Shown here piece after piece: positions 26,193 to 30,953 of a DNA stretch of 64,000 nucleotides; position 1 is the first letter of the stretch, and the number at the start of each line of letters is the position of its first letter. A program made the translations under genes and the position numbers. The stretch is from Aquincola tertiaricarbonis. GTDB lineage: Bacteria; Pseudomonadota; Gammaproteobacteria; Burkholderiales; Burkholderiaceae_C. The stretch covers positions 1,984,001 through 2,048,000 of the forward strand of contig NZ_CP097635.1 of NCBI RefSeq assembly GCF_023573145.1. The letters are read 5' to 3'. The notes below the pieces were generated by a model that saw only the letters and a list, made by a program, of their open reading frames with translations, did no database searches and was not told where the DNA came from.

Positions 26193-26246
26193 GCATATCC
26201 AAAGACGAATCGCTTCCTTGGCTGCCGGCGGTGCCCTGCTTAGGCT
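26193..26246 (+). promoter_or_regulatory. sulfur-type promoter of the encapsulin operon
   Basis: GCATATCCAAAG starts at 26193, TTGGCT is at 26218-26223 (25 nt on), then a 17-bp spacer and TAGGCT at 26241-26246. The same 12-bp GCATATCCAAAG occurs before the 42389 operon. The leader is about 35 nt with an ACAGGAG ribosome site before ATG 26287. Confidence 0.6.
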
Positions 26247-26286
26247 GGCGTTGCCGTCTATCGCCACCCGAACAGGAGCCGTACCG

Positions 26287-26754
26287 ATGTCCGCCGTTCT
26301 CGAAGAAGTTGTCCTCCACCCCACCTTGCAGGCGGCCCAGGCCGAAGCCACGGCGCTGGGCCTGCCCTTCTCCGGCAGCGTCAGCCCGCAGCAGGCCTGG
26401 GAGCTGTTCCAGGCCGGCCAGGCCCGCATCGTCGACGTGCGCACCGCCGAGGAGCGCAAGTTCGTCGGCCAGGTGCCCGGCACCTTGCACGTGGCCTGGG
26501 CCACCGGCACCGCGCTGACCCGCAACCCGCGCTTCGTGCGCGAGCTGGAAGCCAAGGTCGGCCGCCACGACCCGGTGCTGCTGCTGTGCCGCAGCGGCAA
26601 GCGGTCGGCGCTGGCGGCAGAAGCCGCCGCCAAGGCCGGCTTCACCCGCGTGTTCAACATCCGTGAAGGCTTTGAAGGCGAGCTGAATGCCGCGCAGCAG
26701 CGCGGCACCGCCGATGGATGGCGCTACCAGGGGCTGCCGTGGCAACAGGACTGA
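26287..26754 (+). CDS. rhodanese-like sulfurtransferase of the encapsulin operon
   Basis: A 155-residue single-domain rhodanese. The catalytic loop is CRSGKRS with Cys101, preceded by VDVRTAEER (CH2A motif). It would carry persulfide sulfur in the cytoplasm. It is the first gene of the operon rhodanese-epsC-XRE-encapsulin-desulfurase; rhodaneses of this type are regular partners of family 2A encapsulins, so transfer of sulfur to or from the compartment is a sensible inference. Its stop overlaps the next gene. Confidence 0.85.
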
Positions 26755-27716
26755 ACGACCAGTTTCAGGCCGGCACGCTGGGCGTGGAGGGCTTGACCGG
26801 CATGCTGGGCGTGCCGGGCATCGTGGCCGAGCTGCGCGCCGCGCGTGAGCGCTGGCGCACCGCGCAGAACCGGCTGCAGGAAGTGGGCGGCCGCGAGCTG
26901 CCCTCGCGCGAGGCGCTGGCCGCGGTGGTGGGCCAGTTGCGGGGCGCCTTGTTCCCGATGCGGCTGGGCCCGCCTGAGCTGCGGCAGGAGCATGAGGACG
27001 ACTACATCGCCCATACGCTGCAGCAGGCGCTGGCCGAGCTGCTGGTGCAGGTGCGGCTGGAGCTGCGCCACCGTGCGCGCGGCGCGGCCGATCGGGACCA
27101 GGCGCTGGCCGAGGCCGATGCCCGCGCGGTGGCGCTGGTGCGGTCTTTCGGCCAGTCGCTGCCCGGCATCCGCGCCCTGCTGGACAGCGACGTGCTGGCC
27201 GCCTACCAGGGCGACCCCGCCGCACGCAGCGTGGACGAGGTGCTGCTGTGCTACCCGGGCATCCAGGCCATGATCCACCACCGCATCGCCCACCGGCTGT
27301 ACGAGCTGGGCACGCCGCTCTTGGCCCGCATCGTGGCCGAGCTGGCCCATGGCGAGACCGGGATCGACATCCACCCGGGCGCACGCATCGGCGCGGGCTT
27401 CTTCATCGATCACGGCACCGGCGTGGTCATCGGCGAGACCGCCGAGATCGGCCGCAACGTGCGGCTGTACCAGGCGGTGACGCTGGGTGCCCGCCGCTTC
27501 GAGACCGACGAAGAGGGCCACATCCAGAAGGGCGGCGCCCGCCACCCGCTGCTGGAAGACGACGTGGTGATCTATGCCGGTGCCACGGTGCTGGGCCGCG
27601 TGACCATCGGTCGCGGCTCCACCATCGGCGGCAACGTCTGGCTCACGCACAGTGTGCCGCCGGGCAGCCGCATCACGCAGGCCCACCCCACCAGCACCGG
27701 ACCGGGGGTGGCGTGA
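26739..27716 (+). CDS. epsC: serine O-acetyltransferase, EpsC/SrpH type
   Basis: A 325-residue acyltransferase with the left-handed beta-helix of hexapeptide repeats in the C-terminal half (GIDIHPGARIGAGFFIDHGTG, then VVIGETAEIG). His in FIDHGTG is the catalytic base. It makes O-acetylserine for cysteine synthesis. I prefer GTG 26739 with AGGGG upstream over ATG 26718, which has no ribosome site. Homologues (SrpH) are encoded beside SrpI encapsulins in cyanobacteria, so it supplies the precursor of the cysteine consumed by the cargo enzyme. Confidence 0.88.
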   Translation: MATGLNDQFQAGTLGVEGLTGMLGVPGIVAELRAARERWRTAQNRLQEVGGRELPSREALAAVVGQLRGALFPMRLGPPELRQEHEDDYIAHTLQQALAELLVQVRLELRHRARGAADRDQALAEADARAVALVRSFGQSLPGIRALLDSDVLAAYQGDPAARSVDEVLLCYPGIQAMIHHRIAHRLYELGTPLLARIVAELAHGETGIDIHPGARIGAGFFIDHGTGVVIGETAEIGRNVRLYQAVTLGARRFETDEEGHIQKGGARHPLLEDDVVIYAGATVLGRVTIGRGSTIGGNVWLTHSVPPGSRITQAHPTSTGPGVA

Positions 27717-29044: not shown

Positions 29045-30915
29045 CCACCGGCATGAGCGTGGACACCCTTCTCGACAACGTGGCGCACCCGGTGCCGCCG
29101 CCGGGCCTGCCCGACGCGGCCACGCTGGCGCGGCTGGCGGGCGAGTTCTTCGCGGCGCTGCCGGGGGGCGCACCGTCGTTGCCGGCTTCGCTGCCCGCCG
29201 CGCCCGTGCTGGGCGCGGTCGCGTCGCCGGTCGGCCAGGCCAACCCGGCGGTGGGCGGCGTGCCGGTGCCGGCCAACGTGCAGCCTGCCGGCCTGGCGCT
29301 GCCGCCCGGCAGCCACGGCCCGGCCACGCCTTCGCTGCAGCCGCTGGGCGCCACCGCACCGGGCGCCAACCTGGTGCCCAGCTCGCCGCAGGCCCCGGCC
29401 AACGTGGCGGCGCAGGCGCCTTCGCTGCTGCCGCATGCGCAGGCGCCCAACGGCGTGCCCGACCATGCGCTGGTGGCCGCGCCGGCCTACGACGGCCGTG
29501 CCGGCAGCCAGCTGCTGGGCGTGCCCCAGTTGCCGCAGGTGCCGGCGCTGCCACTGCCCGGCCACCCTGGCCATGGCGGCTTGCCCGGTGCCGGCGTGCC
29601 GGCGCCCGCGGGTGCCACCGGCTACTACTTCATCGATGGCCCGGGCACGCGCGCACCGGCGGCTGCGGCCCCGGCGACGCCAGCCGCAACACCGGCCTTC
29701 GACGTGAACGCGGTGCGCCGTGACTTCCCCATCCTGCAGGAGCGGGTGAACGGCAAGCAGCTGGTGTGGTTCGACAACGCGGCCACCACCCACAAGCCGC
29801 AGGCGGTGATCGACCGGCTGGCGTACTTCTACGCGCACGAGAACTCCAACATCCACCGGGCGGCGCACACGCTGGCCGCCCGCGCCACCGACGCCTACGA
29901 GGGCGCGCGCGAAACCGTGCGCCGCTTCATCGGCGCCGGCAGCGTGGACGAGGTGATCTTCGTGCGGGGCACCACCGAAGGCATCAACCTGATCGCCAAG
30001 AGCTGGGGCGCCAAGCACATCGGGGCGGGCGACGAGATCATCGTCTCGCACCTGGAGCACCACGCCAACATCGTGCCCTGGCAGCAGCTGGCGGCCGAGA
30101 AGGGCGCGGTGATCCGCGTGATCCCGGTGGACGACGACGGCCAGGTCATCCTGTCTGAGTACGCCAAGCTGCTGGGCCCGCGCACCAAGCTCGTCTCGTG
30201 CACCCAGGTGTCGAATGCGCTGGGCACCGTCACGCCGGTGCAGCAGATCGTGGCCATGGCCCATGCGGCCGGCGCGCGGGCGCTGGTGGACGGCGCGCAG
30301 TCGGTCTCGCACATGCGGGTGGACGTGCGGGCGCTGGACGCCGACTTCTTCGTGTTCTCGGGCCACAAGATCTTCGGGCCCACCGGCATCGGCGCGGTGT
30401 ATGGCAAGCGCGAGGTGCTGGAGGACATGCCGCCCTGGCAGGGCGGCGGCAACATGATTGCCGACGTGACCTTCGAGCGCACCGTCTACCACGGGCCGCC
30501 CACGCGCTTCGAGGCCGGCACCGGCAACATCGCCGATGCGGTGGGCCTGGGCGCGGCGCTGCAGTATGTGGAGCGCATCGGCATCGAAGCCATCGGCGCT
30601 TATGAGCATGCGCTGCTGGACTACGCCACCCACCACATCCGGCCCATCCCCGGCGTGCGGCTGGTGGGCACCGCGGCCCACAAGGCCAGCGTGCTCAGCT
30701 TCGTGCTGGCGGGCTACAGCACCGAAGAAGTGGGCCAGGCACTGAACCAGGAAGGCATTGCGGTGCGCACCGGTCACCACTGTGCACAACCCATCCTGCG
30801 CCGCTTCGGCCTGGAAACCACGGTGCGGCCGTCACTGGCCTTCTACAACACCTGCGAAGAAGTCGACCGCATGGTGGCCGTGGTGCAGCAACTGGCCCAC
30901 CGCCGTCGGCGGTGA
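29041..30915 (+). CDS. encapsulin cargo cysteine desulfurase (SufS-like) with disordered loading domain
   Basis: A 624-residue class II cysteine desulfurase, about 220 residues longer than SufS. Residues 1-219 are Ala/Pro/Gly-rich and predicted disordered; this is the cargo-loading extension known from family 2A systems, and ends with a distinct GYYFIDGPG block. The catalytic part starts at FDVNAVRRDFPILQ. PLP-binding Lys443 lies in SGHKIFGPTG and the persulfide Cys581 in RTGHHCAQP. It converts cysteine to alanine and bound sulfur inside the shell. GTG 29041 overlaps the encapsulin stop; ATG 29053 is an alternative. A terminator hairpin follows. Confidence 0.93.
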   Translation: MTTGMSVDTLLDNVAHPVPPPGLPDAATLARLAGEFFAALPGGAPSLPASLPAAPVLGAVASPVGQANPAVGGVPVPANVQPAGLALPPGSHGPATPSLQPLGATAPGANLVPSSPQAPANVAAQAPSLLPHAQAPNGVPDHALVAAPAYDGRAGSQLLGVPQLPQVPALPLPGHPGHGGLPGAGVPAPAGATGYYFIDGPGTRAPAAAAPATPAATPAFDVNAVRRDFPILQERVNGKQLVWFDNAATTHKPQAVIDRLAYFYAHENSNIHRAAHTLAARATDAYEGARETVRRFIGAGSVDEVIFVRGTTEGINLIAKSWGAKHIGAGDEIIVSHLEHHANIVPWQQLAAEKGAVIRVIPVDDDGQVILSEYAKLLGPRTKLVSCTQVSNALGTVTPVQQIVAMAHAAGARALVDGAQSVSHMRVDVRALDADFFVFSGHKIFGPTGIGAVYGKREVLEDMPPWQGGGNMIADVTFERTVYHGPPTRFEAGTGNIADAVGLGAALQYVERIGIEAIGAYEHALLDYATHHIRPIPGVRLVGTAAHKASVLSFVLAGYSTEEVGQALNQEGIAVRTGHHCAQPILRRFGLETTVRPSLAFYNTCEEVDRMVAVVQQLAHRRRR

Positions 30916-30923
30916 ACCTGCAG

Positions 30924-30953
30924 GCCGGCGCCGGGAGGCGCCGGCGTCATTTT
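30924..30953 (+). terminator. terminator after the encapsulin operon
   Basis: GCCGGCGCC (30924-30932) pairs with GGCGCCGGC (30937-30945) around a 4-nt loop, followed by GTCATTTT. It separates the operon from the convergent toxin gene. Confidence 0.6.

What the first reader, a model, noticed from the sequence alone, without database searches (positions are those of the whole stretch)
26193..30953. Complete sulfur nanocompartment operon: rhodanese, EpsC, XRE regulator, family 2A encapsulin, desulfurase cargo
The shell gene (28112-29044) and a cysteine desulfurase with a 219-residue disordered N-terminus (29041-30915) overlap, as in known family 2A systems (SrpI/CyD). Here three more genes are in the same tight operon, and the sulfur activator gene sfnR is divergent from it. 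This links a cysteine-sulfur compartment to organosulfur scavenging in one stretch of DNA. Shell and cargo families are established; storage of sulfur in this organism is inference.
Basis: partly seen in the sequence, partly recalled or inferred. Interest (0 to 1): 0.9.

Follow-up and report, generated by a model that had tools for sequence, protein, structure and literature searches.

The report
Sulfur nanocompartment operon with own switch
This is an ordinary, already described kind of bacterial protein nanocompartment for sulfur metabolism, but its small built-in regulator appears to act on a conserved DNA switch in front of the shell gene that I found no description of, so how the compartment is turned on can now be tested directly.

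Summary
The gene cluster is real: rhodanese, EpsC-type serine O-acetyltransferase, XRE regulator, family 2A encapsulin shell and cysteine desulfurase cargo. It is a known kind: EpsC and rhodanese are the published commonest accessory genes, and the five genes stand in this order in 46 of 87 related loci. The proposed SfnR link is weak: no sigma-54 site better than shuffles upstream, and no close copy of the activator in the one congener searched, whose shell is 98% identical. An organosulfur neighbourhood is supported.
New here: a conserved element, TTGNYG(G/T)CTATAGC(C/A)(G/T)GTTGA, between XRE and shell, in 53 of 54 loci with the XRE gene and 0 of 34 without, independent of reading frame, ending in the -35 of a predicted shell promoter. 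A related site follows the predicted rhodanese promoter in a minority of loci. The XRE protein's nearest solved relatives are restriction-modification controller proteins, whose operators share the layout. Best reading: a local switch limiting its own promoter and activating shell plus cargo; binding and direction are untested.

The parts
26218..26246 (+). predicted sigma-70-type promoter of the rhodanese-SAT-XRE unit: -35 TTGGCT 26218-26223, 17-bp spacer, -10 TAGGCT 26241-26246
   Evidence: a -10-like hexamer (TANNNT or CATAGT) stands 9-12 bp before the rhodanese-side site in 13 of 19 XRE+ loci that have the site on the + strand, 1.5 expected from shuffles; hexamer patterns chosen after inspection
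26197..26220 (+). weak match to the conserved rhodanese-upstream box (atgcAAncgcnttTTnATTcGTTt), possibly a LysR/CysB-type sulfur-starvation site
   Evidence: window score 12.2, 90 bases before the rhodanese ATG; better matches in the window at 41457 (17.6) and 59301 (24.0). The CysB reading is recalled, not tested
26256..26265 (+). second operator-like site GTCTATCGCC, about +8 of the predicted rhodanese promoter
   Evidence: loose pattern (set after seeing the window's site) in 20 of 54 XRE+ loci against 1 of 28 XRE- loci; strict pattern, which the window's own site does not meet, 12 of 54 against 0 of 28
26287..26754 (+). rhodanese-like sulfurtransferase (155 aa)
   Evidence: PF00581 53.2 bits
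26718..27716 (+). serine O-acetyltransferase, EpsC type, with long N-terminus (332 aa)
   Evidence: NF041874 167.8 bits against cut-off 150; solved relative 3f1x over residues 55-322
27716..28024 (+). XRE-family regulator (102 aa), predicted to bind the element at 28012-28032
   Evidence: co-occurrence with the element
28012..28032 (+). predicted XRE operator TCGCTGGCTATAGCCGGTTGA (dyad GGCTATAGCC 28017-28026), across the XRE stop codon
   Evidence: the only match of the pattern GKCTATAGCMKGTTGA in the 7.1-Mb genome
28029..28058 (+). predicted internal shell promoter: -35 TTGATC 28029-28034, 18-bp spacer, -10 GATATT 28053-28058 (17 bp in most relatives)
28112..29044 (+). family 2A encapsulin shell protein (310 aa)
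   Evidence: NF041162 531.1 bits, PF19307 340.7 bits; solved shells 8t6r, 6x8m
29041..30915 (+). cysteine desulfurase cargo with N-terminal loading region; counterparts of both published loading-region motifs present (LARLAGEFFA, GYYFIDG)
   Evidence: NF041166 917.7 bits
24868..26148 (-). divergent sigma-54 activator without sensor domain (SfnR-like at best); not counted as part of the system
31533..52094 (.). organosulfur neighbourhood: NlpA/MetQ-type binding proteins (two), MetI- and MetN-like, SsuA/SsuC-like, SfnB/DszC-like and NtaA/DmoA-like genes

Best explanation
It is a family 2A sulfur encapsulin system made of two coupled transcription units. Unit 1 (rhodanese, serine O-acetyltransferase, XRE) is read from a promoter with an upstream box that also stands before an ABC transporter gene in this window. 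Unit 2 (shell, desulfurase cargo) has its own internal promoter. The XRE protein binds a dyad, G(G/T)C-TATA-GCC, centred about 42-43 bp upstream of the unit-2 start. That is the position from which class II activators touch sigma (recalled), so it most likely activates shell and cargo. It also binds a related site about 8 bp downstream of the unit-1 start, which most likely limits its own production. Sulfur starvation would first raise sulfur-handling enzymes and the switch protein, and the switch protein would then commit the cell to building the compartment. The cargo enters the shell through its N-terminal region and takes sulfur from cysteine, with the rhodanese as a likely acceptor. Shown by sequence: the genes, families, cargo motifs, the conserved element, its link to the XRE gene and the promoter spacing. 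Inferred: XRE binding, direction of control, sulfur trigger, compartment function in this organism.
For: Families. Cargo motifs. Element found de novo in shell-upstream DNA. Within 560 bp upstream of the shell the looser pattern is in 53 of 54 XRE+ and 0 of 34 XRE- loci; a dyad-only pattern without the -35 part is in 50 of 54 and 1 of 34, and GTTGA follows it in 50 of those 50 XRE+ loci. Reading frame relative to XRE codons 17/17/16 in 50 loci, so DNA is conserved, not protein. Family survey of 150 genomes: XRE homologues (E<=1e-15) in 16, all at the shell locus; element there in 15 of 16 exact and in the 16th with one mismatch; 0 of 10 shell loci without XRE; 5 matches elsewhere against 8 for the reversed control pattern. 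XRE presence needs at least 9 changes on the cargo tree's well-supported branches; the element follows in a mean of 8.7 of 9 independent pairs, never the other way. A -10 at 17 bp from TTGA (mean score about 4 sd above other offsets; 32 of 38 dereplicated loci best at 17 bp, 6 at 18). Rhodanese-side site 9-12 bp after a -10-like hexamer in 13 of 19 loci, 1.5 expected. Nearest solved relatives C.BclI and C.AhdI by sequence and among the top folds.
Against: No binding or expression data. The window's own promoter has an 18-bp spacer and its upstream sulfur box is weak (12.2). The rhodanese-side site is in a minority of XRE+ loci (20 of 54 loose, 12 of 54 strict), its loose pattern was set after seeing the window, and 6 of 19 such sites lack the -10-like hexamer at 9-12 bp. 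Position near -42 also suits some repressors. 34 of the 88 loci counted, and the A. baumannii locus besides, show neither XRE nor element, so the switch is optional. One XRE+ locus of 54, L057, lacks the element.
Confidence: 0.72

Rival explanations
1. The XRE protein binds the element but as a repressor of the shell promoter (it sits against the -35 box); a sulfur signal or partner relieves it.
For: The element touches the -35. The predicted -35 (TTGA) is good and some relatives have GATAAT at -10, so the promoter might fire alone. Most small XRE proteins known to me are repressors (recalled).
Against: The dyad ends before the -35 and is centred at about -42 at a nearly fixed distance. The -10 begins with G rather than T in 43 of 53 loci, which would suit a promoter needing help. 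XRE has no ligand domain (102 aa, five helices).
Confidence: 0.25
2. The operon is driven by the divergent sigma-54 activator (SfnR-like).
For: The gene is divergent and adjacent in the window and in L002, and a >=50% identical activator lies in the held stretch of 14 of 87 loci. In L075 the activator gene lies between two SfnB-like genes.
Against: Not found above 53% identity in the one congener searched.
Confidence: 0.08
3. A plain single operon read from the rhodanese promoter; the element is a remnant or an RNA-level or translational feature.
For: The genes overlap or abut except before the shell.
Against: 0 Rfam matches. Near-constant -35/-10 spacing and loss of the element together with XRE are not expected.
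Confidence: 0.1

Closest known systems
SrpI/CyD family 2A encapsulin of Synechococcus elongatus PCC 7942 (6x8m/6x8t; PMC8049743, passages read)
   Same: Shell 74% identical; cargo with the two N-terminal motifs; epsC upstream, rhodanese downstream
   Different: The annotated S. elongatus stretch has cysK before epsC and no XRE gene between epsC and srpI; rhodanese follows the cargo; no XRE hit at E<=1e-4 and no match to the element pattern
Family 2A locus of Acinetobacter baumannii (L158 here)
   Same: Shell 82% identical; order rhodanese-SAT-shell-cargo
   Different: No XRE hit at E<=1e-4 and no match to the element pattern in the 12.9 kb read. Published work on elemental sulfur in that encapsulin is recalled, not read here
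Proteobacterial family 2A cysteine desulfurase operons (PMC8346489, passages read), e.g. Variovorax sp. PBL-E5
   Same: SAT and rhodanese as commonest accessories; Variovorax has the same five genes, annotated, and between its regulator and shell TTGGCGGCTATAGCCCGTTGA followed at 17 bp by GACACT, one base outside the pattern used
   Different: I saw no regulator or operator described in the passages read; 'XRE' does not occur in the paper's main text
Restriction-modification controller (C) proteins C.BclI, C.AhdI, C.Esp1396I (PMC3758141, PMC4041747 passages read; PMC6237814 abstract and outline read)
   Same: Nearest solved relatives; fold hits; base-contact R35 and T36 and backbone Y37 of C.Esp1396I fall on R51, S52 and Y53 here, backbone S52 on the invariant T68 (by ungapped register through); operator GNC-TATA-GNC with an outer TG; site against -35; own-gene site acting as roadblock in C.Kpn2I
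   Different: No restriction or methyltransferase gene among the neighbours given to family searches; the base-contact R46 falls on V62, not arginine; C-boxes GGC/GTC rather than GAC; one site, not two, at the activated promoter

Membership tests
Family 2A encapsulin (SrpI type) | Shell matches the 2A profile above cut-off and above 2B | tested here: met
   NF041162 531 bits (cut-off 380) against 411 for NF041163 (2B, cut-off 400)
Family 2A encapsulin (SrpI type) | No cyclic-nucleotide-binding domain | tested here: met
   310 aa, only PF19307 in Pfam
Family 2A encapsulin (SrpI type) | Adjacent SufS-type desulfurase with disordered N-terminal loading region and its two motifs | tested here: met
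   NF041166 918 bits; motif counterparts; disorder inferred from composition and absence of a domain, not predicted
Family 2A encapsulin (SrpI type) | Assembly into ~24-nm particles with loaded cargo | not testable with these tools
   needs purification and electron microscopy
Restriction-modification controller (C) protein | Small XRE helix-turn-helix protein, closest to C proteins | tested here: inconclusive
   C.BclI and C.AhdI are best sequence hits, but an XRE found away from any shell locus (L186) also has C.BclI as best hit, and ClgR and another XRE regulator (5woq) rank with them by fold
Restriction-modification controller (C) protein | Palindromic C-box operator with TATA spacer near the regulated -35 | tested here: inconclusive
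   GGC-TATA-GCC just upstream of the -35; binding untested; GAC boxes absent
Restriction-modification controller (C) protein | Linked to restriction endonuclease and methyltransferase genes | tested here: not met
   none among the neighbouring genes given to family searches (not every gene of the window was tested)
SfnR | Sigma-54 activator of sfn/msu genes | tested here: inconclusive
   sigma-54 domain without sensor; no SfnR model or named relative among those listed
SfnR | Target promoters with -24/-12 elements (applied to the encapsulin operon) | tested here: not met

The most novel reading that the evidence does not exclude
A controller circuit of the kind that times restriction-modification genes has been taken over to time the building of a bacterial organelle: sulfur starvation makes the XRE switch protein, which throttles its own promoter and turns on shell plus cargo from a position against -35, so that the compartment is made late and at a set level.
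Probability: 0.4. Interest if true: 0.72.

Novelty: new variant of a known kind. Interest (0 to 1): 0.5.

Why it matters
How cells decide to build encapsulins is little covered in what I read: the passages say SrpI rises under sulfate starvation but name no regulator of such operons. A 21-bp element that comes and goes with one small regulator over at least nine changes on the tree gives a direct handle: it predicts which strains switch the compartment on locally, where its transcript begins and which mutation silences it. If the controller-protein reading holds, it would be a case of a timing circuit from genome defence reused for an organelle.

Tried and rejected
Rejected: sigma-54 control; an RNA element (0 Rfam matches between 24000 and 52500); protein-level conservation of the XRE end as the cause of the element (frames 17/17/16). 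The class-wide survey gave little: shell at E<=1e-100 in 5 of 276 genomes, XRE profile at E<=1e-18 in 2, one of them a standalone XRE. Naming the sigma-54 activator by homology failed. A search for papers on SsuR/CysB sites gave a listing; of its 20 listed papers I had opened only PMC8234197, for SfnR, and took no site from any. No structure prediction of the shell was run because close relatives are solved.

Limits: the element's pattern was learned from the loci on which it was first counted, and its end GTTGA is part of the pattern; the dyad-only count (50 of 54 against 1 of 34, GTTGA after 50 of 50) is the check on that. Fisher values ignore relatedness; (81 of 88 rows; 7 without a cargo match of over 300 positions were left out) takes it into account. 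The 80 loci are the 80 best of 587 confirmed, so close relatives are over-represented. The 20 control stretches come from seven genomes and are not matched to the loci by organism.
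Full report
WHAT IS THERE. The window holds, on the + strand, rhodanese 26287-26754, serine O-acetyltransferase 26718-27716, an XRE regulator 27716-28024, the shell 28112-29044 and the cysteine desulfurase 29041-30915. The shell matches the family 2A model at 531 bits (cut-off 380) and the cargo the family 2A cargo model at 918 bits (cut-off 800); the acetyltransferase is of the EpsC type. Solved relatives of the shell include 8t6r and SrpI 6x8m. The cargo's N-terminal region carries LARLAGEFFA and GYYFIDG, counterparts of the motifs LARLANEFFS and AASPYYFLDG reported for CyD (passages of PMC8049743; sequence). 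The encapsulin system itself is therefore a plain member of family 2A.

HOW UNUSUAL THE GENE SET IS. Not very. PMC8346489 (passages) reports 1281 family 2A operons with a cysteine desulfurase and names serine O-acetyltransferases and rhodaneses as the most enriched accessory genes. The S. elongatus locus has cysK-epsC-srpI-cyd-rhodanese. Some absences are contig ends. Variovorax sp. PBL-E5 carries the five genes, already annotated.

SULFUR NEIGHBOURHOOD. Downstream, 31533-52094 holds NlpA/MetQ-type, MetI- and MetN-like, SsuA/SsuC-like, SfnB/DszC-like and NtaA/DmoA-like genes. SsuA-, SsuC-, DmoA- or MetQ-type genes are in 22 of 65 related loci of at least 18 kb and in 0 of 20 arbitrary 19-kb stretches from seven genomes of the family. 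The congener G071 keeps DmoA-, SfnB- and MetQ-like genes beside the operon.

THE SIGMA-54 GENE. The divergent gene is a sigma-54 activator without a sensor domain. The name SfnR could not be confirmed from the capped lists seen. Upstream of the rhodanese gene the best -24/-12 match is no better than in shuffles (p 0.57), and 7 of 82 loci reach p<=0.04 (matrix recalled). G071, with a 98% identical shell, has no match above 53% identity to it. A >=50% identical activator over >=300 positions is in the held stretch of 14 of 87 loci. It looks like a fellow resident of sulfur islands, not the operon's regulator.

A CONSERVED ELEMENT IN FRONT OF THE SHELL. An unsupervised motif search on shell-upstream DNA gave TTGatGGCTATAGCatGTTGA, log-likelihood 869 against 84 for one set of shuffled sequences run with fewer starts. 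Within 560 bp upstream of the shell a pattern read from it is in 53 of 54 XRE+ loci (only L057 lacks it) and in 0 of 34 XRE- loci; a pattern of the dyad alone is in 50 of 54 and 1 of 34, and GTTGA follows in 50 of those 50 XRE+ loci. It overlaps or follows the XRE stop in all three reading frames (17/17/16 of 50), so DNA, not protein, is conserved. Variovorax, outside these 88 loci, has it with one base outside the pattern. In a survey of 150 genomes of the family, 26 have the shell and 16 have XRE homologues at E<=1e-15, each at the shell locus. The 16-base core is at the locus in 15 of the 16 and, with one mismatch, in the last (G132). It is at 0 of 10 shell loci without XRE. Five further matches lie elsewhere against 8 for the reversed control pattern. 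In the window's own 7.1-Mb genome the core occurs once. On a tree of 81 cargo catalytic domains XRE presence needs at least 9 changes on well-supported branches, and the element goes the same way in a mean of 8.7 of 9 independent pairs, none the other way, sign test median p 0.004.

A PROMOTER IN REGISTER. Aligned on the element, whose end TTGA serves as -35, the column set GANANT follows at 17 bp (G 43, A 46, A 45, T 49 of 53). Over all offsets the mean -10 score at 17 bp is 5.95 against a mean of 2.57, sd 0.80, with weights from memory that allow G first; in 38 dereplicated loci 32 are best at 17 and 6 at 18, the window being one of the latter. The dyad GGCTATAGCC is thus centred about -42 to -43 from the expected start, the usual place of class II activators (recalled). 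In the window: dyad 28017-28026, -35 28029-28034, -10 28053-28058, ribosome-binding GGGAG before ATG 28112.

THE RHODANESE SIDE. A related site, in the window GTCTATCGCC at 26256-26265, is upstream of the rhodanese gene in 20 of 54 XRE+ loci and 1 of 28 XRE- loci (loose pattern set after seeing the window; strict pattern, which the window's site itself does not meet, 12 of 54 and 0 of 28). Of the 19 XRE+ loci with the site on the + strand, 13 have a -10-like hexamer 9-12 bp before it, 1.5 expected from shuffles, the window among the 13. Binding there should block initiation or elongation. Further upstream lies a box (atgcAAncgcnttTTnATTcGTTt) of LysR/CysB flavour (recalled): 45 of 63 matches above score 18 in 1.62 Mb are upstream of rhodanese genes, on which it was learned. 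In the window it scores 12.2 at rhodanese, 17.6 at 41457 before an ABC-transporter-type gene, and 24.0 at 59301 before a fatty acid desaturase gene; the own genome has only the last two within three mismatches of a pattern drawn from them.

WHAT THE REGULATOR IS LIKE. The XRE proteins share a recognition-helix region LNR(S/T)(Y/F)xG(E/D)xER in the 24 sequences aligned of those found. Their profile matches C.BclI at 70 bits and C.AhdI at 66, then other XRE proteins at 55 and below; the window's protein alone gives the same top two. The model (pLDDT 89) has C.BclI and C.AhdI among its nearest folds, together with ClgR and another XRE regulator. Published operators of C.Esp1396I are GAC-TATA-GTC with an outer TG, one lying in the -35 box (passages of PMC3758141). 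Its base contacts are R35, T36 and R46 and its backbone contacts Y37 and S52 (passages of PMC4041747). By register through these fall on R51, S52, V62, Y53 and T68 here: R35, T36 and Y37 have counterparts, T68 is invariant, and R46 has none, which fits a changed box (GGC for GAC). C.Kpn2I binds inside its own gene and acts as a roadblock (abstract of PMC6237814). Against a special kinship: another XRE, standing away from any shell locus, also has C.BclI as best hit, and no restriction genes turned up among the neighbours tested. So it works like a controller protein on paper; membership is not claimed.

LITERATURE. Searches of the held open-access library for encapsulin with SfnR gave 0 papers, with XRE 1 (by the passages it discusses the two topics apart), and with desulfurase, transcriptional regulator and promoter 2 (the SrpI paper, of which I read passages, and a review I did not open).

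VERDICT. The gene cluster is a known kind. The dedicated XRE-operator-promoter unit is the new part: strong as a conserved, XRE-linked DNA element (my estimate 0.9), good as an XRE operator (0.8), moderate for activation of the shell promoter (0.6), lower for a controller-protein-type circuit with own-promoter repression (0.4).

Noticed in passing
window 30950-31240 (-) and 52384-52908 (+): Two ParE-toxin-type genes; the first follows the cargo gene on the opposite strand. I did not look for antitoxin partners.
   Followed up: no
window 59301-60262: A strong copy of the rhodanese-upstream box stands before a fatty acid desaturase gene. A fatty acid desaturase is also annotated near the Variovorax encapsulin operon. 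Meaning unknown.
   Followed up: partly
L136 (G003): The shell gene lies in two overlapping pieces, 75% and 87-88% identical to the window's shell; a break or an assembly error. Only described.
   Followed up: no
L045 upstream of the shell: A Zoogloea locus without a detected XRE gene keeps a decayed version of the element that still ends in GTTGA, as if the operator had decayed after loss of the regulator.
   Followed up: no
L186 (G263) 4324-4557: A standalone XRE gene outside any encapsulin locus, the only other profile match in the class survey, has a CTATAG-centred palindrome and a similar repeat within about 65 bases upstream of its start.
   Followed up: partly
L067 and L072 (Paracoccaceae): A second serine O-acetyltransferase-like gene lies about 2.7-3 kb upstream of the shell.
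   Followed up: no
L051, L053, L054, L055, L058, L063 (Zoogloea and unclassified MAGs): These operons lack the acetyltransferase gene but keep rhodanese, XRE, shell and cargo, with a sigma-54 activator some 3 kb upstream of the rhodanese gene.
   Followed up: no
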